Shown here piece by piece: positions 25,014 to 44,531 of a stretch of DNA of 64,000 bases. Within the stretch, counting starts at the first letter, position 1. Each line of letters begins with the position of its first letter. Both the position numbers and the translations under genes were made by a program. The notes below the pieces were generated by a model. The model was given only the letters and a program-made list of their open reading frames with translations, did not search any database and had not been told where the DNA came from. Origin of the DNA: Poseidonibacter parvus (GTDB lineage: Bacteria > Campylobacterota > Campylobacteria > Campylobacterales > Arcobacteraceae); the NCBI RefSeq assembly GCF_001956695.1, contig NZ_CP019070.1:1240001-1304000 (forward strand), read 5' to 3'.

Positions 25014-25777
25014 TATTAGAAGTATGTAATGTTACTAAAAAGTTTGGTGGAGTAACTGCCATTAAGGACACATCTTTTAGTGTAAAAGCAAAAGAAATAT
25101 ATGGTCTTATTGGTCCAAATGGTGCTGGTAAAACTACAATGTTTAATATTATTACTGGAAATTATGAACCTACAGAAGGTGATATTAAATTTCATGGACA
25201 AAAAATAAATGGAATAAAACCATATAAAATTGTTCATCGTGGAATTGCAAGAACTTTCCAAAATATTAGACTTTTTACATCAATGACAGTATTAGATAAT
25301 ATTTTAATTGGATTTGATTATCAAGCATCATATACTTATCTAGAAACTATTTTTAGATTGCCTAGATTTTTCAAAGAAGAAAGACGTGTTAAACAAAGAG
25401 CTTTTGAAATCATGGAAGTACTTGGCATAGCAGAGTATGCAGATGAATTAGCAACTTCACTTTCTTATGGACAACAAAGAAAAGTAGAGATTGCTCGTGC
25501 ACTTGCTGCAAATCCTCAACTTTTACTTTTAGATGAACCAGCAGCTGGTATGAATCCACAAGAAACACATGAGCTTGCAGAATTATTCTTTAAAATAAGA
25601 GATGAATTTGATATTACTATTTTATTAATTGAACATGATATGAAGTTTGTAAATAAACTATGTGATAGAGTTATGGTTTTAGATTATGGAAAAACGATTT
25701 TTGAAGGTGATATTAAAGATGCTATTAAAGATGAAGAAGTAATAAAAGCCTACCTAGGAGATTTTAAACATGCTTAA
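25010..25777 (+). CDS. livG: Branched-chain amino acid ABC transporter ATPase LivG
   Basis: A 255-residue ABC ATPase with Walker A GPNGAGKTT at residues 35-43, the signature LSYGQQRKVEIARAL, and Walker B LLLLDEPAAGMNP, all in LivG form. The ARTFQNIRLFTSMTVLDN stretch after Walker A is typical of LivG rather than LivF. It powers uptake with LivF on the cytoplasmic side. Overlaps livM by four bases and livF by eight. Confidence 0.95.
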   Translation: MILEVCNVTKKFGGVTAIKDTSFSVKAKEIYGLIGPNGAGKTTMFNIITGNYEPTEGDIKFHGQKINGIKPYKIVHRGIARTFQNIRLFTSMTVLDNILIGFDYQASYTYLETIFRLPRFFKEERRVKQRAFEIMEVLGIAEYADELATSLSYGQQRKVEIARALAANPQLLLLDEPAAGMNPQETHELAELFFKIRDEFDITILLIEHDMKFVNKLCDRVMVLDYGKTIFEGDIKDAIKDEEVIKAYLGDFKHA

Positions 25778-26465
25778 AGTTAAAAATTTAGAAGTATTTT
25801 ACGGACTTATCAAAGGTGTTAAAGATGTAAACTTTGAAGTTAAAGAAGGTCAAATTGTTTCATTAATTGGATCTAATGGTGCTGGTAAAACTTCGACTTT
25901 ACAATCAATTGTAAATGATGTTAAGAAAAATGGTGAAATCACATTTAGAAATGAAGATATTTCTAAAATGAAAACTCATACAATTATTCAAAATGATATA
26001 GCGCTTGTTCCTGAGGGAAGAAGATGTTTTCAAAACTTAACAATTGAAGAAAACCTCAGAATGGGTGCTTTTAACAATGATGACAAATATGAAGAGCTTC
26101 AAGAAGAGATGTTTAAACTTTTTCCAAGACTTGTTGCTAAGAAAGGTCAATTAGCAGGAACAATGAGTGGAGGGGAGCAACAAATGCTTGCAATTGCAAG
26201 AGCTTTAATGTCAAGCCCAAAACTTTTAATGCTTGATGAACCATCTTTAGGATTAGCTCCTAAAATTATTGGTGAACTTTTTGAAACAATCGTACGACTA
26301 AAAGAAGAGGGTATAACTATTTTATTAGTTGAACAAAATGCTTTTGCTGCTTTAGAAGTATCTGATTATGCTTATGTACTTGAAAATGGTGTAGTTGCAC
26401 TTGAAGGACCAGGATCTGAGCTTATTGATTCTGATGAAATTAGAGCTAAATACTTAGGTGCTTAA
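25770..26465 (+). CDS. livF: Branched-chain amino acid ABC transporter ATPase LivF
   Basis: A 231-residue ABC ATPase with Walker A GSNGAGKTS at residues 34-42, ALVPEGRRCFQNLTIEENL, signature MSGGEQQMLAIARAL, and Walker B LLMLDEPSLGLAP, which is the LivF-specific form. It starts inside the end of livG and closes the operon, followed by a clear terminator. Confidence 0.95.
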   Translation: MLKVKNLEVFYGLIKGVKDVNFEVKEGQIVSLIGSNGAGKTSTLQSIVNDVKKNGEITFRNEDISKMKTHTIIQNDIALVPEGRRCFQNLTIEENLRMGAFNNDDKYEELQEEMFKLFPRLVAKKGQLAGTMSGGEQQMLAIARALMSSPKLLMLDEPSLGLAPKIIGELFETIVRLKEEGITILLVEQNAFAALEVSDYAYVLENGVVALEGPGSELIDSDEIRAKYLGA

Positions 26466-26481
26466 TACTCTAATATAGATA

Positions 26482-26518
26482 ATAGATAGTATTTTTATAC
26501 TATCTATCTACTTTTTTT
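26482..26518 (+). terminator. liv operon terminator
   Basis: ATAGATAGTAT at 26482-26492 pairs perfectly with ATACTATCTAT at 26497-26507 and is followed by a run of seven T residues at 26512-26518. Confidence 0.85.
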
Positions 26519-26531
26519 GATTTAATTTATA

Positions 26532-26630
26532 ATTGATTAACGTTTAACCATTATAATAGATTATATAAATATAAAATAGGATTTTAATATATGTTATTAA
26601 TGCAATTAGAAGCAAGAGAAAAGTTTTCAT
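26532..26630 (+). repeat. Left direct repeat: copy of the TerB-like gene promoter and first codons
   Basis: The segment matches 38742-38843 in the same orientation. The last 75 bases or so, from ATAAAATAGGATTTTAATAT through the first 13 codons of the TerB-like gene, are nearly identical. The first part (ATTGATTAAC, then a TATAATAGA element) is recognisably similar but diverged. Similarity stops abruptly at codon 13 or 14. The two copies bracket the two-component system and the giant lipoprotein gene. Confidence 0.85.
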
Positions 26631-26668
26631 TGGATTTAATACTATCTATACTTCTTAATAACTTTTAA
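26591..26668 (+). pseudogene. Truncated copy of the TerB-like gene start
   Basis: The ATG at 26591 opens MLLMQLEAREKFS, identical in protein to the first 13 residues of the gene at 38804, and then diverges into an unrelated 12-residue tail ending at TAA 26666-26668. It retains the same upstream AATAGGA ribosome-binding site, so a 25-residue peptide could be made, but it is best read as a leftover from duplication or insertion. Confidence 0.8.
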
Positions 26669-26723
26669 TATATTTATTACTTTTTTAATTATATAATGAT
26701 TTATATATCTATAAAGAAAATTA

Positions 26724-28496
26724 ATGAAAAAATATAATCAAATTCTTCTTATACTTATTTTCCTAAACTCTTTTTTATATGCTAATAATCAAATATCTAT
26801 TAGTAATTCTTCTATTTTTATTGATAAAGAAAATTTAAATATCGAAGCTATTAAAACTAAAACCTTTGAGCCTTTAAATAATATTCACAAGAACTTTGGG
26901 TTTAATAAAAACCTTACTGTTTGGTTAAAAATACAAATAAAAAATAATACAAATAAAAAGATACAAAAAATACTAGATCTTGACAATCCTTTATTAGAGG
27001 AAATTGTTTTATACTCAAATAAAGATATTAGAAGAAGTGGTATGTTATATATAGATGAAAAAAGAAAGACAATCAATCCTTCTTTTACTTTAAATATTTC
27101 TGCAAATTCAACGCAATCTTATTATGTTAAAATCAAAAATAACACAACAGCCTTACAGTTTTCTATTAAGCTTGAAGATGAAGAAGTATTTTTAAAAAAA
27201 GATTTTGCTAAACAATTCTCTATTATATTATTAATAGGAGTTATTAGTTCTTTTCTTATTTATGCAATGGTTTTATTCTTTTATGCAAAGGATATAAGCT
27301 ATTTATATTATTCCTTTTATATTATTGTCTTACTCTTTCAGCAACTCACTTATATTGGTTTACTACCCTTATACATGCCCTTATGGTTTACTAGAATTGA
27401 TAATTTGATAGTTGTTCCTAAAGTTGGTGCTGTAATAATTATGGGGATAGTTTTTGCAAGAAGTTTTTTAAAAACAAAGAATTATGAGAACATAGATAAA
27501 ATATATAAATATCTTATATATATAGTACTTTTGCAAATAGTATTTATTTCAAGTCCTTATTTTTATTATCCAGAAATTACCGTTTTAACTGGTTTAGTAT
27601 TTATATTTTTTAATTATTATGCTGCAATCTATGTTTATAAAAGAGGGAATAAGCAAGCTAGATTCTTTATAGTAGGTTGGAGTTTTCTTATAATTGGATT
27701 TTTTCTTACAATTATTGATGCCTTAGGAATTTATTCTATTATGTATAATATTCCAATTTTAGTTTTAGTTTTTACAGCAATTGAAGCTTTATTTTTATTA
27801 CTTGCATTTGTTGATAAGTTAAATATTTTACAAAAACAAAAAGATTCAATTGATAATAAATTAGTAGAAGAGCTACATGAACGAAATGCAATTATCAAAG
27901 AAGAAGTTGAAAATAGAACTTTAATGTTAAAGAATCTATACAGAGAACTTCATCATAGAGTTAAAAATAATTTACAAGTTATGCTTTCAATTATCAGATT
28001 GCAAAGTAATAAAATTGATAATATTGAAACAAAAGAACAGTTTTTAAAGCTTGAAAATAGAATCAAATCTATATCTAAAACACATGAGATTCTAAGTTTA
28101 AATGATGATATTGAAAAAATTGATATGTATGAATATATTTATAGTTTAAGTGAAGATATTGAAACTTCATATTCTAAAGAGATAGATTTTGATATAAGAA
28201 CTGTTGTTTTCATATCCTTGAAAGATGCTGTATATATAGGTATTATAATAAATGAATTACTTACTAATAGTATGAAATATTCTGAATGTACGAAAATCTC
28301 AATTTACTTAACTCAAAAGAAAAATGAATTATTTTTGCATATATCAGATAATGGAAAAGGTTTTAAAAGCTCAGATATAAATGAAAAGTCTTTAGGTTTA
28401 GAACTTGTTAATAGTTTAGTTGTAGGACAACTAAATGGTACTATATCAAAAGATATAGATAATAAATGTGAATACAATATAAAGTTGAAAATATGA
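26724..28496 (+). CDS. Sensor histidine kinase, 7TMR-DISM sensor with HisKA_2 core
   Basis: A signal peptide (to about residue 20) leads into a periplasmic 7TMR-DISMED2-type beta domain (VWLKIQIKNNT, YYVKIKNNT), then seven membrane helices (residues 165-370), a short coiled coil, and a HisKA_2 dimerisation domain with the motif LHHRVKNNLQ around His410-His411. The HATPase domain follows, with NELLTNSMKYS (N box) and HISDNGKGF (G1 box). The input domain usually senses carbohydrate-like ligands. The stop overlaps the response-regulator start by four bases, so they are partners. TATAAT at 26692-26697 may be its promoter. Confidence 0.92.
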   Translation: MKKYNQILLILIFLNSFLYANNQISISNSSIFIDKENLNIEAIKTKTFEPLNNIHKNFGFNKNLTVWLKIQIKNNTNKKIQKILDLDNPLLEEIVLYSNKDIRRSGMLYIDEKRKTINPSFTLNISANSTQSYYVKIKNNTTALQFSIKLEDEEVFLKKDFAKQFSIILLIGVISSFLIYAMVLFFYAKDISYLYYSFYIIVLLFQQLTYIGLLPLYMPLWFTRIDNLIVVPKVGAVIIMGIVFARSFLKTKNYENIDKIYKYLIYIVLLQIVFISSPYFYYPEITVLTGLVFIFFNYYAAIYVYKRGNKQARFFIVGWSFLIIGFFLTIIDALGIYSIMYNIPILVLVFTAIEALFLLLAFVDKLNILQKQKDSIDNKLVEELHERNAIIKEEVENRTLMLKNLYRELHHRVKNNLQVMLSIIRLQSNKIDNIETKEQFLKLENRIKSISKTHEILSLNDDIEKIDMYEYIYSLSEDIETSYSKEIDFDIRTVVFISLKDAVYIGIIINELLTNSMKYSECTKISIYLTQKKNELFLHISDNGKGFKSSDINEKSLGLELVNSLVVGQLNGTISKDIDNKCEYNIKLKI

Positions 28497-29176
28497 AAAT
28501 ACCTGTAATGATAATAGAAGATGAAATGATTGTTGCTATGGAAATAGCTGATTATTTGGAAAACCTTGGATATGAAGTTGTAAATATTTCAAATAACTCA
28601 TTAGATGGATATAACAATGCCTTAAAATACCAACCACATATTATAATGATGGATATAAGAATCAAAGGTGATAAAGATGGTATTGATACAGCTTCAATGA
28701 TACAAAAAAAGATAAATACAAGTATTATTTATTTAACTGCATATTGTGATGAAACTACAGTTGAGAGAGCTATTAAAACTAACCCAAGTGCCTATTTAAC
28801 AAAGCCTTTTAATAAACAAGAATTATTTGTTTCTCTTAAAATGGCAGTATCTTCGTATGATAATAATATTAAAAGAGAAGATCATAAAGTCGGAGATATA
28901 CTATTTGATAATGAGTTTAGTTATGACTCTAAAAATAATCAACTTATTTATAATAATGAATACCTACATCTTACAAAAAGAGAAATTCAACTTCTAAATC
29001 TTTTAGTTATTTCTAAAAACTGCATTATTTCAATTTATGAAATGGAGAATAAAATATGGCCAGATAAATTTCCCAATGAAAATACTAGAAGAGCCTTAGT
29101 TAGTAGACTTAGAGCTAAAATGAAGTATAAATTCATTGAAACTATCCCTTCTATTGGTTATAGAATAAATATCTAA
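28493..29176 (+). CDS. Response regulator with winged-helix DNA-binding domain
   Basis: The receiver domain occupies residues 1-120 with acidic pocket Asp10, phospho-acceptor Asp54 (MMDIRIKG) and Lys104 (YLTKPF). The C-terminal 90 residues form an OmpR/PhoB-type winged helix (LTKREIQLLNLLVISKN, ENTRRALVSRLRAKMK, IPSIGYRINI). Overlaps the kinase gene (ATGA). The tandem 11-bp repeat about 60 bases downstream, over the -35 of the giant lipoprotein gene, is a natural binding site for this protein. HisKA_2 kinases paired with a winged-helix regulator are somewhat unusual. Confidence 0.93.
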   Translation: MKIPVMIIEDEMIVAMEIADYLENLGYEVVNISNNSLDGYNNALKYQPHIIMMDIRIKGDKDGIDTASMIQKKINTSIIYLTAYCDETTVERAIKTNPSAYLTKPFNKQELFVSLKMAVSSYDNNIKREDHKVGDILFDNEFSYDSKNNQLIYNNEYLHLTKREIQLLNLLVISKNCIISIYEMENKIWPDKFPNENTRRALVSRLRAKMKYKFIETIPSIGYRINI

Positions 29177-29234
29177 ATCTTTTGTTTATAACTCTAATCA
29201 TAATTATTTTATAATTTAATATTTTTTTTATTAT

Positions 29235-29270
29235 TTTTGCAATGCTTTTGCAATGCCTTTTTCTTATACT
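29235..29270 (+). promoter_or_regulatory. Tandem 11-bp activator box and -10 of the giant lipoprotein gene
   Basis: TTTTGCAATGC occurs twice without spacing at 29235-29245 and 29246-29256. TATACT at 29265-29270 is a good -10 element, which puts the second repeat over the -35 position. No TTGACA-like -35 is present. This is the layout of promoters activated by OmpR/PhoB-family regulators, one of which is encoded directly upstream. Confidence 0.65.
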
Positions 29271-29298
29271 TAGTAACAAGAAAAATAAAGGATTAAGC

Positions 29299-32200
29299 AT
29301 GAAGAATATTAAGATATCTATACTATTATTAATATTTACAATAGTATTAATTGGTTGTAATAGTGGTAATAAAGTATCATCATCAAGTTCAAGTGGTATT
29401 GCACAAAAAGGTCCATTTTTAGATGGCTCTACTGTAACGGCATACAAGCTTAATAATGGTGAAAGAAGTACTACTGATAAGAAAAGTACAACAACAAATG
29501 ATGATAAAGGTTCTTTCTTACTTCCTCTACCATGGTCAGGTGCAACTGAATATGAAATTAAAGGTGAGTATTTAGATGAGAATACTGGTAATTATGTAAG
29601 TAATGGGATACTATCTGCGATTGTTAATCTCCAAGCCAATTCTTCTCCTAATATAAATATAAATATTTTTACTCATATTGCTGCAGCACAAATAAAAGAC
29701 ATGTTAAAAAATGGTGAAAATATTAATGTTGCAAAAGAAAATGCAAGAGAAAAAATAAAAGAAATGTTTTCTTTAGAATTATCAAATGATACTCAATTAG
29801 AAGACCTAGATTTAACAGATGGAATAAGTTCTAATAAATCTGATAATGCACAGCTTTTAAAAATTTCAGCTGCAATACTAGCTTCTGATAATCCAGATAC
29901 TTCATTAGATAAGTTAACTAAACTTATTACTGTTGAGGGAGATATAAATACTGATGTTATAAATACTTATAATGATATATTAGAAAAAGCTGATAATGTA
30001 GATTTATTTAGTGTTAGTAATATCTTATCTTCTACAATTGGTGTATCAAACGCTCCTAGTGAAAATACAAGACAAGGTAGCTTACCTTTTAATCATAATC
30101 TATCTTTTGATACAAAAGTTGACCAAGATATAAATAAAGGTTTAATTTCTAATTATATTGTAATTAACAAGCTTTCTTCAACTGCAAAATTAACTATAAA
30201 CAATGGTTATTATAGTTTAAATGATGGTGAGTTTACTGATATAGAAACAACTGTAAAAAATGGTGATTCTATAAGAGTAAAACATTATTCATTAGATTCT
30301 TTTTCTAGTGAAAATATAAGTACTTTAAATATTGGAGTTTCACGAATTACTTTTAAATCAATTACAAAAGCAAATCCAACTTTAAATATAACAAGTCCAA
30401 ATAAGTTTTCTTTTCCAATTAGAATAAATGCTCCTTTAGGAGGACTTATTACAAGTGATGAAATTATTGTAAGTGGTTTAAGTAATGGAGTTGTTTCAAA
30501 AGTTGGAATAACAAGTGGTGCTTCATATAAAATCAACGATGGAACTTGGAAAAGCAATCAATATGAAGATACTTTACAATTTGCAAGTGTTAGAAATGGT
30601 GATATTGTAAAAGTTAGTAAAGCTGCTAGTTCTTCTTATGGTGGAAAAGAAGAAGCAACTTTAACTATTGGTGGTATTGAGGGGAAATTTATCATTTTCT
30701 CAAAAGAAAAAGATTTAAAACCTGATTTATTCTTTCCTAAAACTGTATATTTAGCTGAGTTAAATACTAAATATGAAACTTCATATTTTAAAATGAGTGG
30801 ATATGAGGGTGGTTTAGATATTAAAGTTACAAATGGTGAAGTTCAACTTGAAGGTGAAAAAATTTGGTTGAGTGAACTTTCTCAAGTACCTACAGGCTAT
30901 AAAGTTAAATTTAGACAAACATCTTCATCATCGTATGGAACAATAAAAAATACTCATATTGAAGTAGGTAAAAGTATAGTAAACTTTGAAACTAAAACAA
31001 TAGATAATCCTAGTGTTCCAAGTTCAAATGTTGATAAAATAGAGTTTAAAACAGTTTTTGATGCAGATTTTAATAGCTTTGTTGAAAGTGAAGAGAGAAT
31101 TATCTCCGGAATCAATGATACTGCAACTTATGCTTATGTTTCGAATGGAGCACAAATGAGTGTAAATGGTTCTGCTTGGACGAGTGAAGCTATGGACATT
31201 GGTGCAGGAAGTAAAATAAAACTAAGAATAAAAACAGCTTTAGATAATAATAGTACAAATGCGGGATATCTTTATTATGGACCTGAAAAAAAATTATTCG
31301 CTAGTTTTCATGTTTATAATAAAAAAATTGATACTAAAATAGATAGTATAGATTTTATTGATAAAGAAAATGCTGCTATTAATACTTATTATGAATCAAA
31401 TATTGTTACAATAAAAGGTATTGATTCTTATACTAATGTAAAAATTGTAAATGCTGAATTTAAAATTAATGGTGGTGAATGGAAAACAAGTTCTGATAAA
31501 TTGTTGCTTTATGTTGATAATACATTACAATTAAGACATAAAAGTTCACAAGAAGCAAATGATATTGTAAGAAGTATTGTTAGTTTTGATAACGCACAGT
31601 ATGAATTTAAAACAAAAACTTCAAATGCTCCTGTACTTCTAAATGAAATTCCTACAAGAGTAAATCAAAATTCTAATTATACTTTTATTCCAAATGTAAG
31701 TGATTTTCATACTTTAACTTATTCTTTAATAAGTAAACCAACTTGGATGAGTATAAATACTCAAACAGGAGAAATAAATGGAACTGCAGGTCAAAATGAT
31801 ATTGGACAATCTGATACTATTTCTTTATTAATTAAAAGTTCAAGTGGACTTGAAACAAATATAGATTTTAAAGTTATGGTAGATGATGTTAATGATGCCC
31901 CAATTTTAAGTGATATTTGGACTTCATCTACTACAGATGAAAATAGAAATTATTCTAAACAAGCAAGAGCTATAGATATTGAAGGTGGAGACTTAACTTG
32001 GAGTATTTCTAATAATCCTACTTGGTTGAATATCAATACTCAAACAGGAGAATTAACAGGAATTCCAAGACAAACTGATGTTGGAATAAAAAAAGATATT
32101 AAAGTAATTGTAAGTGAAGAAGGTGGACTATCTAGTTCTTTTACTTTTAATTTAACAGTTATTGATAAAAATTCTAATGTTACATTATCAGCAATATCTG

Positions 32201-35200
32201 ATAAAACAGTAAATGAAAATGAAGAACTAACCGTACAAATTCATGCAAATGATTTAGATGGAGATATTTTAATTTTTAATATACAAAATCAACCATCTTG
32301 GCTTACTTTTGATAAAGAAGCACAAACTCTTAGTGGAACACCAACTAAAGATGATATTGGAGATATAAATATCACTATTAGTGTAACAGATGGAAAGGGT
32401 TCAACTCGTTTTGAAAGTTTTAAAATCACTGTTATAGATGTAAATGAAGTACCAATTATTACTAGTGCTGACTTTAAAAAAGAGTTTATTCTAGATGATA
32501 CAAGTGCAACTCCTAATAATTATACTTTCACTTTTGATATATCAGATAATGATAATACTTTAAACTCATCAAATGTAACTTATGCTGGTGTTATAACTGA
32601 AACAAGAGTAGGTTTTGCAAAAACAGCTAATTTTTCAAACACCACTTTAGAATGTCTTAGAGGAAAATGTACTGCAATTATAAGTTTTGCTTTTCAAGAT
32701 ATTGATGATTTTCATCCAAGTTTAAAAACAAGACATACTTTTACTGTAAGTGATGGTGATAAAAGTGTAAGTAATTATATAGATATTTGGTATGCTCCAA
32801 CTACTCCTATTCTTAGTGGAGAGCTTTCACATACAATTGAACCTAAAGACAAAACATCTTATGAAGCATTCTCATTTACTCCTACAAATAGTGGAAACAA
32901 AGCTAGAACATGGGAAATAAAAAATATGCCAAATGGTTTTGAATTTAATAAAAGTACTGGAGAACTTAAATATTCACGATTAATTAAAGGTTTATTATCA
33001 GATGATACAACTTTTAAAGGTATAGAAATAACAGCAACAAATGATAGAGGTACAAGTGAAAAGTTTATATTTAATATTCTAGTAAAAGGAAAACCAGCTA
33101 CACCGAAATTTCAATTTAATGATAAAGTAGGAGTTGAAATACAACAATGGTTTGATTCTAGTGTTACAGTTGATTGGTTAGAAACAGGTCTTAGTAAAGC
33201 TGTTATAAGTAGTGGATATCTTGGGCAAAACGTACATTTCGGTTTTAAAGTAAATGGACAAGATGGAATATCAGGAACTACTACTGTTCAAAATGGTGAT
33301 ATTCTTACAGTTTGGCATAAATCATCAAATGAATATGATACTACTTTAGATACGACTATTACAATTGGTAATGATAGTGATACTTTTAGTACTACAACTA
33401 AAGAAAATGAAAATACAAAATTACCTTTAATCGTAGGTGCTCCTAATACTAGAGCTAATGTCGGTGAAGTTTATTCTTATATTCCACAACTTAGTACAGA
33501 TTATACAAAATTCGCAGCAGTTACAAAACCTTTTACTATTGAAAATAAACCTTCATGGGCAACATTTAATACAGTTACTGGAGCGTTAAATGGAACACCT
33601 AGAGAAATTAATGTTTATAATCAAGTAAGAATCACTGCATTTGGAGATAATGGATTAGATGATATTACATTTAACATTACAGTTTCTAATGATGCACCTT
33701 ATATAAATGGAGCAGGGCATAGTTTAGAAAACCCAGATTTATCATTTAATTTTACTGATAATGCTACTTGGAGAGATTCAATTACAGAAGTTTCTATGTT
33801 TGGATGTTATGATGAAAGTACGAGTGTTATTTTAAATCCTAGTGATTATACATTTTCAGAAGGAAGTTTAAAACTTCATGCTTCAACTACTACAAATCCA
33901 ATTCTACTTACTCCATATATTGGTGGAGCTGGACTTGTTGTAAAAGCAAGTAATTATCCAAATAGTGAAGTTATTATCAATATGGTTGAAGATGGTCAAT
34001 ATGCAGTAAAAGCAACAAGTATTGAATTTGCTGATAATAAACCAATAACAGAGGCTAATTTAAATGAGGCAAGAATAAATATACATTTATCAAATCATTT
34101 AAAATTTATTGATAATTCACTTTCAAAAAATAACTTCTCACTTTATAGTTCACCAAATGGAGTATCAATATCTAATGTAGCTTATATAAATGAATCAATT
34201 GCTCAAGTAACACTTCAGTTTGATGGTACAGATTTTGATGAAGATAAATTAATACAAATATCAATAGCAGCAAATGAATTAAATATTTGTCAAGAAGTTA
34301 TCACTAATAGTCTTGATGTAACAGCAGTAGTTGAAATACCTTGGTCAAATGTTATTTATCCAAGTGATCCAATAGATAATGCACATTTTGGAAACTCTGT
34401 AGATGTAAAAGATGGAACAGCTGCAGTGATAGCAAGATCAGGAATTTATATTTACAATAAAGATATAAATGGAGATTATCAAGAAACTCAAAAAATAGCT
34501 GCATTTGAAGGGACAGAAATTCTTGGCGCTTCAATAGCTTTAGACGGAGATTATTTAGTTGCTGGTAATGGAAATTATTATGTTGAAGGTAATGGTTTAG
34601 AAGGCAGAGTAGAGCTTTATAAAAAGAATGAAAATGGAATTTATTCTTTAATTCAAAATATAACAGTTTCAGGTTTAAGTGACTCAGCTCATTTTGGTGC
34701 ATCTGTTGATATTAGTGGTGATTTATTACTAATTGGTGCTTATAATGATGATAATCATAAAGGAGCTGCTTACTTATTTAAAAATAATGGAAGTGATAAT
34801 TTTGCTTTAGTTGAAACAATAAAAAGAGCTGATGGAAAAAGTTCAGATAGTTTTGGTTTTGATGTAGCAATTGATGGAGATTATTTTGTAATCGGTTCTT
34901 CGGTATTTCCAGATTTAGGAGCAACCCCAATAGATACAAAACCTGAATTAGGTGCAGGATTTGCAAATTATTACACTTATTTAAATGATACTTTAGAGTT
35001 AATAAGTGTAATTACTCCAAGTGATTCTTCAAGATTAGCTGATCATTTTGGATTTGGTGTTGCAATTTCAGGAGATCATATAGCTATTTCTTCTTTTGGA
35101 AATAATGATACAGGTTCAGTATATTTATATAAAAGAGCTTTTAATACAGTGATTTCTAATGGAAAAATAGAAAATACACAAGCAATAACAGGTAGTGTTG

Positions 35201-38200
35201 GTATATATCATGATGCTTTAAATTATATAGTTGCAGGTAATAATTCTTATACACCTCAAGGTAATGATTATATAAAAAGTACAGTACCTAGTGTTTATGG
35301 ATATGATGTAGCAATTGACCAAAATGAGGTAATTTTTGGAAACTGGAAAAATGATGATAAAGCAATTGATGGTGGAGCTGTTTTAATTACAAATATTGGT
35401 GAAACAATTAGTGAAGAAGTAAATGATACTATTCCTCATCAATTTACTTTTACAGATAAAACTGATGCTTCCTTAGATGAAGTAGTAAGTTCATCTATAA
35501 CAATTACGGGAATAAATCAAGAGACACCTGTATCAATAATAAATGGTGAATATTCATTAGATGATGGTATAACTTGGCAAACTGAAGCATTAACTCTAGA
35601 AAATAATCAATTAGTAAAAGTAAGACATCAATCTTCTTCTTTTTATGCAACTAGTGTCGATACAATTTTAACAGTTGGAACTATAAGTGATACTTTCTCT
35701 TCTAGTACAATTACAGAGCCTTTAAAAACAGTTCCTACAATAATTGGAAAAGTTGGATACAGTTTAGAAAATGATGCTTTTATCTTCTCTTTTGAAGAGG
35801 ATGAAGCTTGGGAAAGTGCTATTAGTCAAGTTTATTACAAAGCTGGAGTAAATAGTGAATATTCATTATTAAAAACATATGAATATGAAATAACAAGCGG
35901 ACAAATAAAACTTATAATCAATAGTTCAACAACAGTTGATTTAAGAACACCATATTCAGTTAATGATACAAATGGATCAATAAAAATTATTGCAGATGGA
36001 TATGAAGACAATACTCATTCAATAGCGTCTGTAACAAGTGGTAAAAATGCTATTAAAATAGAAAATAGTCCACATCAAGATAATACTACAATAACAGAAG
36101 CAAATCTTGATGCTGCAAAGATTTATGTAATTTTAGGAAATTCTTTAGAGTTTAAAGACAACATCTTAGATGTAAATAACTTCACTTTAAATCTTGCACC
36201 AATAGGTACTACAATTTCATCTGTAACTTATAATGATAGTAGTTCTGCAATTGTTACTTTAGCTTACGATGGAAGCGATTTTGATACTAATGCTGAAGTA
36301 AATGTAGTTGTTAATAAAAATGAATTAAATACTAATGTAACTGTAAGCGGGAAATATCCAATTACAGTTACTGCTATAGATGAACAAAACGGTGGTTCAA
36401 CTAGAGGACAAGCAATAGACCCATATATTGTAAATGCAAGATTTTGGTATGATGCAGATGGTGATTCACAAGAAGATGAAGATGAAATATCTTCTTACTC
36501 AAATGAAAATGGTGAGTTTATTTTTAACATTCAAGTTCCTGAAAATGCATTGATTACAATGCTTGATAAAGGTTTACATAATGGTAAGGTTTTTGATGGT
36601 AATTTAAGTGCTAAATATTCTAGTTCAAAACAAGGACTTATTTCACCTATTACATCAATTAGTACTTTAGGTTTCACGAATCAAGAAATTATTAGCTTAT
36701 TAGTTACTAATGGTTTTGATGCAAATTTAAGTGTAGAAGAACTTTATTTGGATCCTTTTGATTCAAGTATTTTACTTGAAGATATGAGTATAGCTACAGA
36801 TGAACAAAAAGCAAAACTTAGAAGAGTATTACTTTCAAATGTAATAATTAACTCTGCAATTATGGCAAATTCAAGTGGATATGACATAACTAAATCAAAT
36901 TTAGAAGATTTTTTTAATACAGTTTATTCAGCTAGTGAGGAAGGTGATTTTGAAGGTGCACCCCAAGATACTACAATCTTAAAATTCCTAATATCTTTGG
37001 GAAATGAGGTTTTATCAAATGATAAATTAGGTTCACAATCGAAAATAAGAGCAAGAATCTTTGTAACAGTTTCTGAATATGTAAGTAAAAGATTAAAAGA
37101 TTCTATTTCAGGAGGAGGAAATCCGATTTGGGAGTTTGGATCTATACTTTCGGAATCTCAAAATATGATATATCCTTTATCTTATGCATATACAAAATCT
37201 TTATTCAACAATATGACTAATCCAAAATTTGCTTGGGTAGAAATTGATTTTAATTATAGACCAATATTAATGGTAAATAATCAAATATTAGGTGATTTTA
37301 AAAAGCTTACACTTATTTACAAAGACAGCTCAAACGATGAACAAACAATAGAATTTATAAGAGATAATCAAGATTTTACTGAAAATGATGTTACATCAGG
37401 ACAATGGATGATTCAAGATAGAAAAGTTCTAGCAAATGGAAAAGAATACGAGATTTTAGGAGATAAAATCATTGTAAATGGTGAAACTTTTGATATTCGT
37501 GATGTAATAGTTCAAAAAGAAGATGATAGTTTAGAAAACTACTATGAAGAACTTCCTCAATTTGAAAGTTCAAACTTAACTAATAATGAAACATATGTTG
37601 ATTTAGATACTAATATTATATTTAATTATGACAAGGTTTTAGAAGCAATTCATGTTAATAATACTAAGTGTTATATACAAAAAGCAAATGAATATAATGC
37701 CGTTGAAGTTACACCACAGCAATTTTCAGGAGCTAGTATAATATATAAACCAAGTGAAGATTTACTTTACAATCAAAAATACTCTTTTACTTGTTCTATT
37801 TCTTATGGAGAACAATCTTCGTATAAAAGTATAAGTTTTACAACTCTTCCAAAACCTTTACCTATTGTAAAAACAGGACAAGAAGATAACTTCTCTTTAA
37901 ACAATGATATAAGTAGATCTAGAAACGGAAATATTGTAAAAGATGAGAATACAGGTTTAATGTGGAATGATGATGGTTTCAATGAAACAAGAACAAACTC
38001 TTCTGCAAAACTATATTGTAGTGCTTTAACTGTAGATACATATGATGACTGGAGATTACCAAGTGCAAAAGAGATGCAAACACTTATTATTTTTGATGAT
38101 ACTTCTCCTTCAAATATAGATAGTTTCGTTAATTTGATTCATTTTGATTATTGGACTAGTACAAAAAGTGTTGAATCAAGTACTTGGAATTCAGATCAAT

Positions 38201-38628
38201 ATATAAAAATTAAATTTCCGAATGAAATGGGAACAGAAATTGAAGCAGGTGGAAATAAATTTATTTGTGTAAGAGATTATGAACCCAGTGAAGAAATCAC
38301 TGTAACAGAACTACAATGGCAAGATTTATCAAATGATGCAAAAACTTGGGCAGAAGCAAACACTTATTGTGAAAGTTTAGCAGGAACATGGAGATTACCA
38401 AGTATTCAAGAGTTATTAACGACAGCAGGAGGAAAAGAAGTTATTAATGATACTTATTTAAATTCATTAAACTCAAGCTTTCAAGGCTCTTTAGTTGATA
38501 ACTATTGGTCTTCAACTATTTATAATTCGGATAATACAAGAGCTTATAAAATGTCTGCAAGATATGGTTCAATTAGTACAAGTTCAAAAGACACTACTAA
38601 TAAAGTGCTTTGTGTTGGTGCTTTATAA
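29299..38628 (+). CDS. Giant multidomain surface lipoprotein
   Basis: From the ATG at 29299, with AAAGGA upstream, the protein has 3,109 residues; a longer reading from 29242 would begin inside the promoter. A lipobox (IVLIGC, Cys20) predicts lipid anchoring. Then come an IAQKGPFLDGSTVTAYKL domain, five or so divergent beta repeats of 80-100 residues (NGDxVxVxHxSS...TLxIG...F), three cadherin-like/He_PIG repeats (about residues 780-1050) and more mixed repeats. FG-GAP propeller repeats follow around residues 1680-2030, flanked by repeats of the ITEANL...F type. Two DUF1566 domains (GLMWND...DWRLPS; WRLPSIQELL) end the protein. Likely surface-exposed and adhesive; ligand unknown. Confidence 0.88.
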   Translation: MKNIKISILLLIFTIVLIGCNSGNKVSSSSSSGIAQKGPFLDGSTVTAYKLNNGERSTTDKKSTTTNDDKGSFLLPLPWSGATEYEIKGEYLDENTGNYVSNGILSAIVNLQANSSPNININIFTHIAAAQIKDMLKNGENINVAKENAREKIKEMFSLELSNDTQLEDLDLTDGISSNKSDNAQLLKISAAILASDNPDTSLDKLTKLITVEGDINTDVINTYNDILEKADNVDLFSVSNILSSTIGVSNAPSENTRQGSLPFNHNLSFDTKVDQDINKGLISNYIVINKLSSTAKLTINNGYYSLNDGEFTDIETTVKNGDSIRVKHYSLDSFSSENISTLNIGVSRITFKSITKANPTLNITSPNKFSFPIRINAPLGGLITSDEIIVSGLSNGVVSKVGITSGASYKINDGTWKSNQYEDTLQFASVRNGDIVKVSKAASSSYGGKEEATLTIGGIEGKFIIFSKEKDLKPDLFFPKTVYLAELNTKYETSYFKMSGYEGGLDIKVTNGEVQLEGEKIWLSELSQVPTGYKVKFRQTSSSSYGTIKNTHIEVGKSIVNFETKTIDNPSVPSSNVDKIEFKTVFDADFNSFVESEERIISGINDTATYAYVSNGAQMSVNGSAWTSEAMDIGAGSKIKLRIKTALDNNSTNAGYLYYGPEKKLFASFHVYNKKIDTKIDSIDFIDKENAAINTYYESNIVTIKGIDSYTNVKIVNAEFKINGGEWKTSSDKLLLYVDNTLQLRHKSSQEANDIVRSIVSFDNAQYEFKTKTSNAPVLLNEIPTRVNQNSNYTFIPNVSDFHTLTYSLISKPTWMSINTQTGEINGTAGQNDIGQSDTISLLIKSSSGLETNIDFKVMVDDVNDAPILSDIWTSSTTDENRNYSKQARAIDIEGGDLTWSISNNPTWLNINTQTGELTGIPRQTDVGIKKDIKVIVSEEGGLSSSFTFNLTVIDKNSNVTLSAISDKTVNENEELTVQIHANDLDGDILIFNIQNQPSWLTFDKEAQTLSGTPTKDDIGDINITISVTDGKGSTRFESFKITVIDVNEVPIITSADFKKEFILDDTSATPNNYTFTFDISDNDNTLNSSNVTYAGVITETRVGFAKTANFSNTTLECLRGKCTAIISFAFQDIDDFHPSLKTRHTFTVSDGDKSVSNYIDIWYAPTTPILSGELSHTIEPKDKTSYEAFSFTPTNSGNKARTWEIKNMPNGFEFNKSTGELKYSRLIKGLLSDDTTFKGIEITATNDRGTSEKFIFNILVKGKPATPKFQFNDKVGVEIQQWFDSSVTVDWLETGLSKAVISSGYLGQNVHFGFKVNGQDGISGTTTVQNGDILTVWHKSSNEYDTTLDTTITIGNDSDTFSTTTKENENTKLPLIVGAPNTRANVGEVYSYIPQLSTDYTKFAAVTKPFTIENKPSWATFNTVTGALNGTPREINVYNQVRITAFGDNGLDDITFNITVSNDAPYINGAGHSLENPDLSFNFTDNATWRDSITEVSMFGCYDESTSVILNPSDYTFSEGSLKLHASTTTNPILLTPYIGGAGLVVKASNYPNSEVIINMVEDGQYAVKATSIEFADNKPITEANLNEARINIHLSNHLKFIDNSLSKNNFSLYSSPNGVSISNVAYINESIAQVTLQFDGTDFDEDKLIQISIAANELNICQEVITNSLDVTAVVEIPWSNVIYPSDPIDNAHFGNSVDVKDGTAAVIARSGIYIYNKDINGDYQETQKIAAFEGTEILGASIALDGDYLVAGNGNYYVEGNGLEGRVELYKKNENGIYSLIQNITVSGLSDSAHFGASVDISGDLLLIGAYNDDNHKGAAYLFKNNGSDNFALVETIKRADGKSSDSFGFDVAIDGDYFVIGSSVFPDLGATPIDTKPELGAGFANYYTYLNDTLELISVITPSDSSRLADHFGFGVAISGDHIAISSFGNNDTGSVYLYKRAFNTVISNGKIENTQAITGSVGIYHDALNYIVAGNNSYTPQGNDYIKSTVPSVYGYDVAIDQNEVIFGNWKNDDKAIDGGAVLITNIGETISEEVNDTIPHQFTFTDKTDASLDEVVSSSITITGINQETPVSIINGEYSLDDGITWQTEALTLENNQLVKVRHQSSSFYATSVDTILTVGTISDTFSSSTITEPLKTVPTIIGKVGYSLENDAFIFSFEEDEAWESAISQVYYKAGVNSEYSLLKTYEYEITSGQIKLIINSSTTVDLRTPYSVNDTNGSIKIIADGYEDNTHSIASVTSGKNAIKIENSPHQDNTTITEANLDAAKIYVILGNSLEFKDNILDVNNFTLNLAPIGTTISSVTYNDSSSAIVTLAYDGSDFDTNAEVNVVVNKNELNTNVTVSGKYPITVTAIDEQNGGSTRGQAIDPYIVNARFWYDADGDSQEDEDEISSYSNENGEFIFNIQVPENALITMLDKGLHNGKVFDGNLSAKYSSSKQGLISPITSISTLGFTNQEIISLLVTNGFDANLSVEELYLDPFDSSILLEDMSIATDEQKAKLRRVLLSNVIINSAIMANSSGYDITKSNLEDFFNTVYSASEEGDFEGAPQDTTILKFLISLGNEVLSNDKLGSQSKIRARIFVTVSEYVSKRLKDSISGGGNPIWEFGSILSESQNMIYPLSYAYTKSLFNNMTNPKFAWVEIDFNYRPILMVNNQILGDFKKLTLIYKDSSNDEQTIEFIRDNQDFTENDVTSGQWMIQDRKVLANGKEYEILGDKIIVNGETFDIRDVIVQKEDDSLENYYEELPQFESSNLTNNETYVDLDTNIIFNYDKVLEAIHVNNTKCYIQKANEYNAVEVTPQQFSGASIIYKPSEDLLYNQKYSFTCSISYGEQSSYKSISFTTLPKPLPIVKTGQEDNFSLNNDISRSRNGNIVKDENTGLMWNDDGFNETRTNSSAKLYCSALTVDTYDDWRLPSAKEMQTLIIFDDTSPSNIDSFVNLIHFDYWTSTKSVESSTWNSDQYIKIKFPNEMGTEIEAGGNKFICVRDYEPSEEITVTELQWQDLSNDAKTWAEANTYCESLAGTWRLPSIQELLTTAGGKEVINDTYLNSLNSSFQGSLVDNYWSSTIYNSDNTRAYKMSARYGSISTSSKDTTNKVLCVGAL

Positions 38629-38637
38629 ATAATTAAT

Positions 38638-38677
38638 ATAACATGAAGAAATTTAATCAAAGATTTTTTCGTGTTAT
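38638..38677 (+). terminator. Hairpin after the giant lipoprotein gene
   Basis: A 15-bp stem joins 38638-38652 with 38663-38677. Its two non-Watson-Crick positions are G-U on the forward strand, which suggests an RNA hairpin in the forward transcript. No long T tract follows, so it may be a weak terminator or a 3'-end stabiliser. Confidence 0.55.
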
Positions 38678-38741
38678 GACTCACTCACAAGTATAACTAT
38701 TCAACAAAGAATTCTAAGTGCTGAAATTATGATTATTTATT

Positions 38742-38843
38742 ATTGATTAACTTAAAATGAATATAATAGAATACAAGATAAACATAAAATAGGATTTTAA
38801 TATATGTTATTAATGCAATTAGAAGCAAGAGAAAAATTTTCAT
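38742..38843 (+). repeat. Right direct repeat: promoter and start of the intact TerB-like gene
   Basis: This is the copy connected to the full gene. It matches 26532-26630, starting at ATTGATTAAC and becoming nearly identical from ATAAAATAGGA to codon 13. It marks the right edge of a segment of about 12.1 kb. Confidence 0.85.
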
Positions 38844-39211
38844 TTTTACAATTAGCTCATTATTTAGCTAGAATTGATAAGAGTTATGGAAAAAGAGAAG
38901 AAGAAGTGATCTTAGATTATTGTACTGAAATGGGAATTGAGAATTTAGATTCATTTGAAATTGACACTTTTTGTTTAGAAGAGAATTTAAATAACTATAA
39001 ATCTACTCGAAGTCAAAGAATAATTCTTTTAGAACTAATGATTTTAATTCACATTGATAATAATTTTCATGTTAATGAAAAACATTTAATAAAGAAAATG
39101 ACAGAAAAATTTGGATTTGATTTAAAAGATATTGATGACTATTCTCAATGGGGAAAATCAGTAGCAATGCTTTCACAAGTTGCAAATATCTTTATAAATG
39201 AAGGAAATTAG
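38804..39211 (+). CDS. TerB-like helical protein
   Basis: A 135-residue, probably all-helical cytoplasmic protein. The pattern of an acidic start (HYLARIDKSYGKREEEVILDY) followed by LLELMILIHIDNNFHVNEKHLIKKM resembles the repeated helical pairs of TerB/tellurite-resistance-like domains, with acidic residues at turn positions. Function unknown. AATAGGA serves as ribosome-binding site. Its promoter and first 13 codons are duplicated at 26.6 kb, which shows that DNA was inserted or duplicated here. It is followed after 55 bases by the ZapA-like operon. Confidence 0.6.
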   Translation: MLLMQLEAREKFSFLQLAHYLARIDKSYGKREEEVILDYCTEMGIENLDSFEIDTFCLEENLNNYKSTRSQRIILLELMILIHIDNNFHVNEKHLIKKMTEKFGFDLKDIDDYSQWGKSVAMLSQVANIFINEGN

Positions 39212-42042: not shown

Positions 42043-42756
42043 ATGTCTAAAAGAATAGAAGCCTTACTTGATAATAAAGCACTATTTCTAAACTCTGCTT
42101 TAAAAGAAGCACAAGAAGAAAAATCAAGACTATCTATGCTTTTATCAAGAAATAAACAAAGAATAAATGAAATCCAAGAAGAAAAAGCTAGCTTTATTAG
42201 CCAGTTTAAAGATACAAAATACCAAGAACTACTAGCTATAAAAAAAGAACAAAGAAACGTAGAATCAGAAATAAACGCAATAAAATTCCAAAATAAAAAA
42301 CAATCTATTATTTCTCCAACAGATGGCTTTGTAGCAAAAATGATGATAAATACAATAGGTGGTGTAGTAACACCAGCTGAAAAACTAATATCAATAGTTC
42401 CAAAAGACGCACAACTAATAGTAAAAGTAAATGTACTAAACCAAGATATAGGTTTTATAAAAAATGATATGATTTCAAAAATCAAAATAGATACCTTCTC
42501 TTTTCAAAAGTATGGATTCTTTGAAGGAACTATCATAAACGTAGGAAGCTTTTCCCTTGATGATGAGAAACTTGGACCAATTTATGAAGTGAAAATTGAA
42601 CCAAATGGTAAAACTTTGATGGTAGAAGGGAAAGAGCGATATTTAGAAGCTGGTATGAGTCTAACTGCTGAGATAAAAGTAGGTAAGAGAAGAGTTATTG
42701 AGTTCTTTATATATCCAATTATTCGGTATTTGGATGAAGGGTTGAGTGTTAGATGA
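42043..42756 (+). pseudogene. C-terminal half of an HlyD-family type I secretion adaptor
   Basis: The 237 residues correspond to the second half of a periplasmic adaptor: a long coiled coil (residues 5-85, for example ALKEAQEEKSRLSMLLSRN), the second lipoyl half (IISPTDGFVAKMMINTIGG), the PAEKLISIVPKDAQLIVKV strand, and the C-terminal beta-barrel and membrane-proximal domain. Complete adaptors are about 430 residues and begin with a membrane helix, which is missing here. No ABC exporter or outer-membrane partner is nearby. Either a relic or a short product starting at a real ATG with a promoter of its own. Confidence 0.7.
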
Positions 42757-42802
42757 TGAAAATAATATGTAATAAAAAAATTAAACTAAAAAAGGAAAAA
42801 AG

Positions 42803-43402
42803 ATGAGCCTTGAATTAGAAGATATTGAAGAGATGGATAAGGTAGTAGAAATAGTTGAAAAAAATGGAAAAAGATATATAGATGATGAAGAGATACTTAT
42901 AGAACTTAGATTAATTACTTTAGGTAATTTCTCGATTAAGATATTTTTGTTTTTATGTGGATTAGTTACATTATTAGCTTTTATTGATAAAGGAGAATAT
43001 GCTAATCCTATTACATATATCGTGTTTGGGATATGTTTATATATTTTTATTATGACAATAAATATGTTTATAAATATTTATAAATATAAACTATATATTA
43101 CAGAAAATCATTTTATTACATATAGATATGTAAAGATTCATAAAAATGATATATATTTTAAACATATGTCTAATCTGGAGTCAAAATTTTTAGGAAAACA
43201 ATGGAAGTTATATACTAACAATTTTTTTATATGTAATTATTTTGAAGAATCAAATTATGATAAACCAAATTTTAGAGATGTGATGTACAAAATCTCAAAA
43301 AATGATTTTTTTTATAAAGATCCTGCCTCGGATCTTTATAAAAAAATAAGTATTCTTAATAATAATATAAAGATAAAACTAATTAAAAAAGGAGAAGAAT
43401 AG
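42803..43402 (+). CDS. Unknown membrane protein
   Basis: A 199-residue protein with an acidic N-terminal 50 residues, two membrane helices (residues 54-68 region IKIFLFLCGLVTLLAF and TYIVFGICLYIFIMTINMF), and a basic C-terminal domain of about 100 residues with alternating strands. The two-helix plus beta-domain plan is like PH-domain membrane proteins, but no motif is decisive. AAAAAGGAAAA precedes the ATG. It lies between the HlyD remnant and the transposase scar, in a region of accessory character. Confidence 0.6.
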   Translation: MSLELEDIEEMDKVVEIVEKNGKRYIDDEEILIELRLITLGNFSIKIFLFLCGLVTLLAFIDKGEYANPITYIVFGICLYIFIMTINMFINIYKYKLYITENHFITYRYVKIHKNDIYFKHMSNLESKFLGKQWKLYTNNFFICNYFEESNYDKPNFRDVMYKISKNDFFYKDPASDLYKKISILNNNIKIKLIKKGEE

Positions 43403-43572: not shown

Positions 43573-43764
43573 ATGCCAAGACGAGTAAGAATTGAATTAG
43601 CAGGTTATCATCACGTATATAATAGAGCCGTAGAAAGAAAATACATATTGCAGAACATATCTGATAAAGATAAGTTTTTAGAGATATTAAATGAAGTGAG
43701 TGAGGAAAATAGGGGTCAGGTCATGAATTTCCACTTTTCAAACAAGAACACTTTTTTTAATTAA
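43573..43764 (+). pseudogene. REP-associated tyrosine (Y1) transposase, truncated
   Basis: The first 45 or so residues, MPRRVRIELAGYHHVYNRAV then ERKYILQNISDKDKFLEILNEV, are the standard start of a TnpA_REP/RAYT transposase. The full protein has about 200 residues or more with an HUH motif and catalytic Tyr; here the frame runs into repeat copy 2 and ends in the repeat-encoded tail NRGQVMNFHFSNKNTFFN. The catalytic part is missing, so this copy is dead. Confidence 0.85.
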
Positions 43765-43854: not shown

Positions 43855-43922
43855 TTAAAAATAATACCAAATTAAGACTAAATTTAATACAATATATTAT
43901 CTTAAATTTAAAGGTGGATAAA

Positions 43923-44195
43923 ATGCATTTGAGTCAAGATATAAAACCAATTAGTTATTTAAAAACAAAAACAGCTGATATTATAAATAGTGTAAATGAA
44001 AATCAAAGAACTATAATCATAACGCAAAATGGTGAGGCTAAAGCAGTTGTTCAAGATATTAAAACTTATGAAAACTTACAGAATTCTTTAAATTTATTAA
44101 AATTAATTGTTCAAAGTGAAAATGATATCGAGAACAATAATACAACAAAACAAGAAAAAATGTTTGATAATTTAGAGCATAAGCTATTTGGATAA
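43923..44195 (+). CDS. Phd/YefM-family antitoxin
   Basis: From the ATG at 43923, with AAAGGTGG upstream, the protein has 90 residues. The N-terminal DNA-binding and dimerisation domain is typical: IKPISYLKTKTADIINSV, then QRTIIITQNGEAKAVVQDIKTYE. The C-terminal half is the flexible toxin-binding tail. It lies six bases before the ParE-like toxin gene. Antitoxins of this family repress their own operon and neutralise the partner. A longer reading from 43914 adds three residues without a better start. Confidence 0.9.
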   Translation: MHLSQDIKPISYLKTKTADIINSVNENQRTIIITQNGEAKAVVQDIKTYENLQNSLNLLKLIVQSENDIENNNTTKQEKMFDNLEHKLFG

Positions 44196-44201
44196 AATCA
44201 T

Positions 44202-44531
44202 ATGAACCAATTTGAAGTGATATGGACAAATAGTGCCCAATTTGATTTAGAATCAATTATTGAATACATTAAAATTGATAGTTTAAGTATTGCAAAGAAA
44301 ATATTTTTTGAAATTAAAGAAGAGTGTAATAGTTTATATACTTTTCCAAAAAGAAAAAGAATTGTACCCGAGTTACAGCAAATAGGTATTTTAAAATATA
44401 GAGAAATTATATATAAAAGATGGCGAATAATATATAAATTTGATGATAAAAAAGTATATATTTTATTAGTAGTAGATTCAAGTAGAAATTTAGAAGATGT
44501 ACTATTTCAAAGATTACTTAAAACAAAATGA
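44202..44531 (+). CDS. ParE/RelE-family toxin
   Basis: A 109-residue protein with the ParE/RelE pattern: VIWTNSAQFDLESIIEYIK at the start, FPKRKRIVPEL in the middle, and YREIIYKRWRIIYKFDDKKVYILLVVDSSRN at the end, the basic beta strands that form the active surface. ParE members poison gyrase and RelE members cut mRNA; the sequence favours the ParE side but does not settle it. It forms a type II toxin-antitoxin operon with the gene before it, next to transposase remnants. Confidence 0.9.
   Translation: MNQFEVIWTNSAQFDLESIIEYIKIDSLSIAKKIFFEIKEECNSLYTFPKRKRIVPELQQIGILKYREIIYKRWRIIYKFDDKKVYILLVVDSSRNLEDVLFQRLLKTK

What the first reader, a model, noticed from the sequence alone, without database searches (positions are those of the whole stretch)
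26532..38843. A segment of about 12 kb with a sensor-regulator pair and giant lipoprotein lies between two direct copies of a neighbouring gene's 5' end
The promoter and first 13 codons of the TerB-like gene at 38804 are present again at 26532-26630, same orientation. They are nearly identical over the last 75 bases and diverged further upstream. Between the copies lie only the histidine kinase, response regulator and lipoprotein of about 3,100 residues. The simplest reading is that this module was gained by insertion or by a duplication with replacement, leaving a truncated 25-codon copy on the left. No integrase or transposase is present, so the mechanism would be recombination-based. The repeats could still support deletion of the module.
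Basis: partly seen in the sequence, partly recalled or inferred. Interest (0 to 1): 0.68.

Follow-up and report, generated by a model that had tools for sequence, protein, structure and literature searches.

The report
Recombination scar beside a swappable module
A 12-kb sensor-regulator and giant surface-lipoprotein module sits in a chromosomal slot that relatives fill with other genes or leave empty, and the extra piece of the neighbouring gene is most likely the scar of an imperfect recombination between a chromosome that carried the module and one that did not.

Summary
The repeat is real. The promoter and first 13 codons of the weakly TerB-like gene (38804) recur at 26525-26631, same strand, with a 52-bp perfect core. 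The genome is Arcobacteraceae-like. The livF-terB interval is a variable slot in this family: empty, marC, other genes, or histidine kinase + response regulator + giant proteins. All six family genomes with close kin of this kinase carry it in this slot, in two genera, with two unrelated cargo types. Only this genome has a second terB 5' end.

Two findings explain the copy. (1) The copies are about 97-98% identical in leader and start codons but 69% in the promoter, and each promoter is closer to another species' terB promoter than to the other copy: two orthologous alleles, not a within-genome duplicate. (2) The DNA just after the truncated copy matches, 18/18, the second arm of the livF terminator hairpin between livF and the kinase in relative G099. 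The left end therefore joins a module-less livF-terB allele to a module-bearing livF-kinase allele: the signature of homology-facilitated illegitimate recombination. ComEC and DprA homologues are present. Which parent was the recipient is unresolved. Recombination at the repeat could delete the module and leave terB intact.

The parts
25770..26465 (+). livF, left core-gene flank of the variable slot
   Evidence: ORF; tblastn 77-96% in relatives
26476..26518 (+). complete livF terminator-like hairpin plus T run (module-less-allele side)
   Evidence: RNA fold -11.9 kcal/mol; similar hairpin after livF in G099, -11.5 kcal/mol
26525..26631 (+). left copy: terB promoter, leader and first 13 codons plus 2 bases
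26591..26668 (+). truncated terB ORF, 25 codons, terB-like only to codon 13
26631..26632 (.). hybrid junction: terB codon 14 joined to livF-HK spacer
26634..26651 (+). orphan second arm of a livF terminator, 18/18 identical to the G099 livF-HK spacer; hairpin lost here
   Evidence: (0 of 1000 shuffles reach the score)
26724..28496 (+). histidine kinase: 7TMR-DISMED2, 7TMR-DISM_7TM, HisKA_2/HATPase
   Evidence: Pfam; orthologues in the same slot
28493..29176 (+). OmpR-type response regulator (Response_reg + Trans_reg_C)
   Evidence: Pfam
29296..38628 (+). giant lipoprotein, 3110 aa from ATG 29296 (3128 aa from 29242): He_PIG, FG-GAP_2, Shr-like_HID, two Lcl_C domains
   Evidence: Pfam; N-terminal 1690 aa 66% identical to the G060 protein in the same slot
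38735..38844 (+). right copy of the repeat (promoter and 5' end of the intact gene)
38804..39211 (+). intact weakly TerB-like gene, right core-gene flank
   Evidence: 77 of 104 family genomes, almost always single copy; PF05099 E 0.0011, below cut-off

Best explanation
The livF-terB interval is an exchangeable chromosomal slot. A chromosome carrying livF-HK-RR-lipoprotein-terB and a related chromosome carrying livF-terB without the module recombined. One end joined by ordinary homology in the shared flanking core genes. The other end joined illegitimately, with terB codon 14 of the module-less allele fused to the livF-terminator loop of the module-bearing allele, leaving a complete livF terminator, a terB promoter and a 25-codon terB stub in front of the module. 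Shown: the hybrid junction sequence, the two-allele pattern, the slot-specific distribution. Inferred: uptake by natural transformation, the short microhomology used, and the direction. Gain of the module by an empty recipient is slightly favoured, because the two species closest in acnB have empty slots. Functionally the module is most likely a surface-sensing two-component system that controls its adjacent giant surface cargo, with the cargo swapped between lineages (inferred from adjacency). The 52-bp repeat allows a clean 12,213-bp deletion that would restore terB behind the left promoter.
For: The 18/18 match of 26634-26651 to the G099 livF-HK spacer begins 2 bases after the terB stub; no dinucleotide shuffle of 1000 reached the score. 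That arm forms a strong hairpin in G099 and is orphaned here. Promoters: LEFT-RIGHT 69%, LEFT-G091 82%, RIGHT-G099 85%; leader 96%, codons 98%, while different species share 95-100% of these codons in most pairs. Mismatches are concentrated in the promoter (12/39 vs 2/66, Fisher p about 1e-4), unlike uniform decay of a dead copy. All six family genomes with close HK have HK-RR between livF and terB; empty, marC and other slots are common. No second terB 5' end in 13 other genomes. Flank gene trees disagree, as expected with recombination at hotspot-flanking core genes (PMC5635113). ComEC and DprA homologues present; Aliarcobacter butzleri is transformable (PMC8308473).
Against: The promoter comparison rests on about 40 bp and the junction match on 18 bp. 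No same-species strain was available. The actual donor and recipient are not identified, and right-flank genes do not group with G099. The other product or an intermediate was not seen. Assembly error at the repeat cannot be excluded without reads. Competence of this organism is untested.
Confidence: 0.77

Rival explanations
1. Within-genome event: a piece of the local terB promoter and 5' end was copied (templated insertion or tandem duplication) into the livF-HK spacer of a chromosome that already carried the module, with no second parent.
For: It also yields the stub followed by half a livF terminator, and needs no foreign donor. The leader and codons are nearly identical between copies.
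Against: The left copy is preceded by its own complete livF terminator, so livF-terminator-promoter-stub is contiguous as in a module-less allele. The copies differ at 31% of promoter sites but only about 3% downstream, and each promoter is nearer another species' allele than its partner.
Confidence: 0.14
2. Site-specific insertion of a mobile element into the 5' end of terB, the repeat being an attachment-site duplication.
For: A direct repeat of a gene's 5' end at both edges of a 12-kb segment, with the gene restored on the right, resembles an integrated island.
Against: No integrase or transposase in the segment. The same module in G099, G067, G065, G055 and G060 has no such repeat. The inner left edge is a livF-terminator fragment, so the module already sat beside livF before the event.
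Confidence: 0.03
3. Assembly artefact: reads from two strains or two allelic states were joined wrongly at the 52-bp repeat.
For: The repeat could confuse short-read assembly, and no raw reads were available.
Against: The genome is one contig, estimated 100% complete. The hybrid junction is unique sequence with a precise livF-HK spacer match, and the module lies in the same slot as in five relatives.
Confidence: 0.05

Closest known systems
Homology-facilitated illegitimate recombination (Acinetobacter, Streptococcus pneumoniae, Pseudomonas stutzeri; PMC3240628)
   Same: One end of incoming DNA joins by homology, the other by an illegitimate join that leaves a hybrid junction; no integrase needed.
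   Different: Known mainly from laboratory transformation or conjugation; here inferred from a natural scar, with donor and recipient unknown.
Displacement arrays in Vibrio cholerae type VI secretion clusters (PMC5361080)
   Same: Cassette exchange at a fixed locus anchored by conserved flanking sequence, leaving leftover fragments of the previous arrangement.
   Different: Leftovers there are whole immunity genes; here the leftover is a promoter and a 25-codon stub of a core gene.
Integrase-free gene-transfer hotspots flanked by recombining core genes (PMC5635113)
   Same: Variable content between conserved core genes, no integrase, incongruent flank trees.
   Different: Defined there within species; here the same slot and cargo types are shared across genera.
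7TMR-DISM histidine kinase two-component systems
   Same: DISMED2 + 7TM + HisKA_2 kinase next to an OmpR-type regulator.
   Different: Here tied to one chromosomal slot, with two unrelated giant-protein cargoes.

Membership tests
Homology-facilitated illegitimate recombination product | hybrid junction between two non-homologous sites of two parental alleles | tested here: met
   terB codon 14 joined to livF-HK spacer arm
Homology-facilitated illegitimate recombination product | extensive homology available at the other end | tested here: met
   liv genes and terB-priA genes are about 85-91% identical among close genus members
Homology-facilitated illegitimate recombination product | short microhomology at the illegitimate end | tested here: inconclusive
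Homology-facilitated illegitimate recombination product | foreign (donor) origin of one side | tested here: inconclusive
   promoter alleles point to two lineages, but flank gene trees do not name a donor
Integrase-free horizontal-transfer hotspot | different accessory genes between the same two core genes in relatives | tested here: met
   empty, marC-like, oxidoreductase-like, other genes, or module in the slot
Integrase-free horizontal-transfer hotspot | no integrase or transposase in the segment | tested here: met
Integrated island with attachment-site repeat | integrase gene within the element | tested here: not met
Integrated island with attachment-site repeat | same repeat flanks the element in relatives | tested here: not met
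7TMR-DISM histidine kinase | DISM 7TM domain with extracellular DISMED2 and kinase core | tested here: met
TerB | Pfam TerB above the curated cut-off | tested here: not met
   PF05099 19.7 bits versus 24.4; NCBIfam DjlA 0.0056, far below cut-off; the structure model was too poor to decide

The most novel reading that the evidence does not exclude
The livF-terB slot holds a cargo-swapping surface-sensing cassette: a constant kinase-regulator pair whose giant surface cargo is exchanged across genera, and in this genome the leftover terB 5' copy makes the whole module deletable and re-gainable, with the captured terB promoter now feeding the kinase. That would be a reversible on/off state at population level.
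Probability: 0.15. Interest if true: 0.6.

Novelty: new member of a known kind. Interest (0 to 1): 0.45.

Why it matters
Natural products of illegitimate recombination are seldom caught with both parental alleles still legible. This scar shows how a large surface-protein cassette can enter or leave a core-gene slot without any mobile-element enzyme. It also exposes a slot in Arcobacteraceae-like bacteria where one sensor-regulator pair is paired with two unrelated giant surface cargoes in two genera, which makes cargo exchange directly testable.

Tried and rejected
marC remnant before the right terB copy: aligned, none found. terB 5' copies in relatives: none (the one score above shuffles, G059, is a short gapped AT-rich match). 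Donor/recipient assignment by flank identity and gene trees: flanks disagree (liv block places G000 beside G099/G093/G094; terB-priA block beside G094), so unresolved; acnB is closest to module-less G094 and G098, the ABC-F-like gene to G091 and G098. Plasmid carriage: only about 29-30% identical kinases and 25-30% partial lipoprotein matches. TerB fold: single-sequence model pLDDT 62, no significant structural match. Genome-contig scan for named relatives gave one contig, the same stretch as G067.

Full report
OBSERVATION. The direct repeat exists as described. Ungapped comparison gives 26550-26631 against 38763-38844 at 89%. A gapped local alignment extends it to 26525-26631 against 38735-38844, with score 150 against a maximum of 45 in shuffles. 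The core is a 52-bp perfect run, then one mismatch and eight matches. The left ATG is at 26591; the stub ORF 26591-26668 encodes MLLMQLEAREKFSLDLILSILLNNF, and is terB-like to residue 13. A search of the whole 2.87-Mb genome found only these two copies (two further 37-49-bp hits lie outside the homologous part of the query). Between the copies are only the kinase, the regulator and the giant lipoprotein.

THE SLOT. The terB-like gene is single copy in nearly all of the 77 of 104 family genomes that have it, and in the 30 loci checked it is followed by the same orf66-orf69-pilin-like-priA genes. What precedes it varies. In the window's genus the livF-terB gap is 90 bp in G098 and 30 bp in G094; in G097 the livF 3' end is visible directly upstream of terB. 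It holds one marC gene in G091, G096, G095 and G092 and two marC-like genes in G093. G036 of another genus is empty (124 bp). In genus g10 most fetched genomes are empty, G059 has a marC-like gene, and in genus g16 three have marC-like genes; G084 has an oxidoreductase-like gene. Labels of marC-like genes other than that of G099 rest on sequence resemblance; only the G099 gene was run against Pfam (PF01914).

THE MODULE IS NATIVE TO THE SLOT. Close relatives of the kinase (56-71% identical) occur in five other family genomes: G099 (same genus) and G067, G065, G060, G055 (genus g10). In all of them the kinase and regulator lie between livF and terB. Cargo comes in two unrelated types. Type A (G099, G067, G065, G055) is a CARDB protein, a beta-barrel-like protein, a 2700-residue protein, an fn3 protein and a small protein. 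Type B (this genome and G060) is a giant lipoprotein, 66% identical over the first 1690 residues and divergent after that. The kinase of this genome groups with that of G099 (support 100/99) although the cargoes differ, so cargo has been exchanged under a conserved kinase; the regulator tree is less clear on this. Outside the family, G138 has the kinase-regulator pair with type A cargo at another locus and G224 has the pair alone. Pfam: kinase 7TMR-DISMED2, 7TMR-DISM_7TM, HisKA_2, HATPase_c; regulator Response_reg and Trans_reg_C; lipoprotein He_PIG, FG-GAP_2, Shr-like_HID, Lcl_C. Control of the cargo by the pair is inferred from adjacency.

THE TWO COPIES ARE ALLELES. Identity between left and right is 69% in the promoter (-65 to -26), 96% in the leader and 98% in the first codons. 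The left promoter is 82% identical to that of G091, the right promoter 85% to that of G099 and 82% to that of G096. Different species of the genus share 95-100% of the first codons in most comparisons, so high identity there does not mean a recent duplication. Mismatches are 12/39 in the promoter and 2/66 downstream (Fisher p about 1e-4); a dead duplicate should decay evenly. These comparisons use short stretches and are supportive, not conclusive.

THE JUNCTION. The bases directly after the stub, 26634-26651 (ATTTAATACTATCTATAC), are identical over 18/18 to the spacer between livF and the kinase of G099, and no shuffle of 1000 reached the score. In G099 this is the second arm of a livF terminator-like hairpin (-11.5 kcal/mol). 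In this genome livF has its own complete hairpin at 26476-26518 (-11.9), and the arm after the stub is orphaned. So the left edge reads: livF, complete terminator, terB promoter, terB stub, half of a second livF terminator, kinase. This is a join of a module-less allele to a module-bearing allele. The structure is symmetric: an empty recipient gaining the module by homology on the right, or a module-bearing recipient receiving module-less DNA by homology on the left, give the same result. Flank trees do not decide. acnB is closest to the module-less G094 and G098 (94%), which slightly favours gain.

MECHANISM AND LITERATURE. This matches homology-facilitated illegitimate recombination, known from three naturally competent species and, rarely, from E. 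coli conjugation (PMC3240628), and proposed for cassette displacement in Vibrio cholerae (PMC5361080). Integrase-free hotspots flanked by recombining core genes are a known general pattern (PMC5635113). Aliarcobacter butzleri, a relative, is naturally transformable (PMC8308473), and this genome has ComEC and DprA homologues. Uptake by transformation is therefore plausible but inferred.

CONSEQUENCES. Recombination at the 52-bp run would delete 12,213 bp and leave an intact terB behind the left promoter. The left terB promoter now lies upstream of the kinase; consensus scans of the region are no better than shuffles, so promoter capture is an idea only. The gene called TerB-like scores below the Pfam TerB cut-off and its structure could not be modelled well.

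VERDICT. Observation confirmed. The insertion/duplication reading is replaced by a hybrid recombination scar in a variable slot. The kind of event is known; this is a clear natural example, with an additional pattern of cargo exchange under a conserved kinase-regulator pair.

Noticed in passing
window 43573-43764: 63-aa ORF resembling the start of a REP-associated transposase, apparently truncated; no Pfam or NCBIfam hit.
   Followed up: partly
window 43914-44531: Phd/YefM antitoxin (PF02604) and ParE-family toxin (PF05016) pair downstream of priA.
   Followed up: partly
window 42043-43402: HlyD-family fragment (42043-42756) and the next gene (42803-43402) had no blastn match in the relatives' fetched flanks, so the stretch after priA also looks variable.
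   Followed up: no
L057 8788-9999 and L055 17690-18910 (coordinates with terB on the + strand): A receiver-plus-kinase-like protein of about 403-406 aa sits before the kinase in G060 but just before terB in G067, so it moves within the slot.
   Followed up: no
window 29296-38628 (residues 2144-2363 of the lipoprotein): The giant lipoprotein carries internal partial repeats; relative to the G060 protein its C-terminal part looks extended by duplicated domains.
   Followed up: no
L086 (G138): A genome of another family keeps the kinase-regulator pair with type A cargo at a different locus, next to an aspartase-like gene; the CARDB-like gene appears duplicated.
   Followed up: partly
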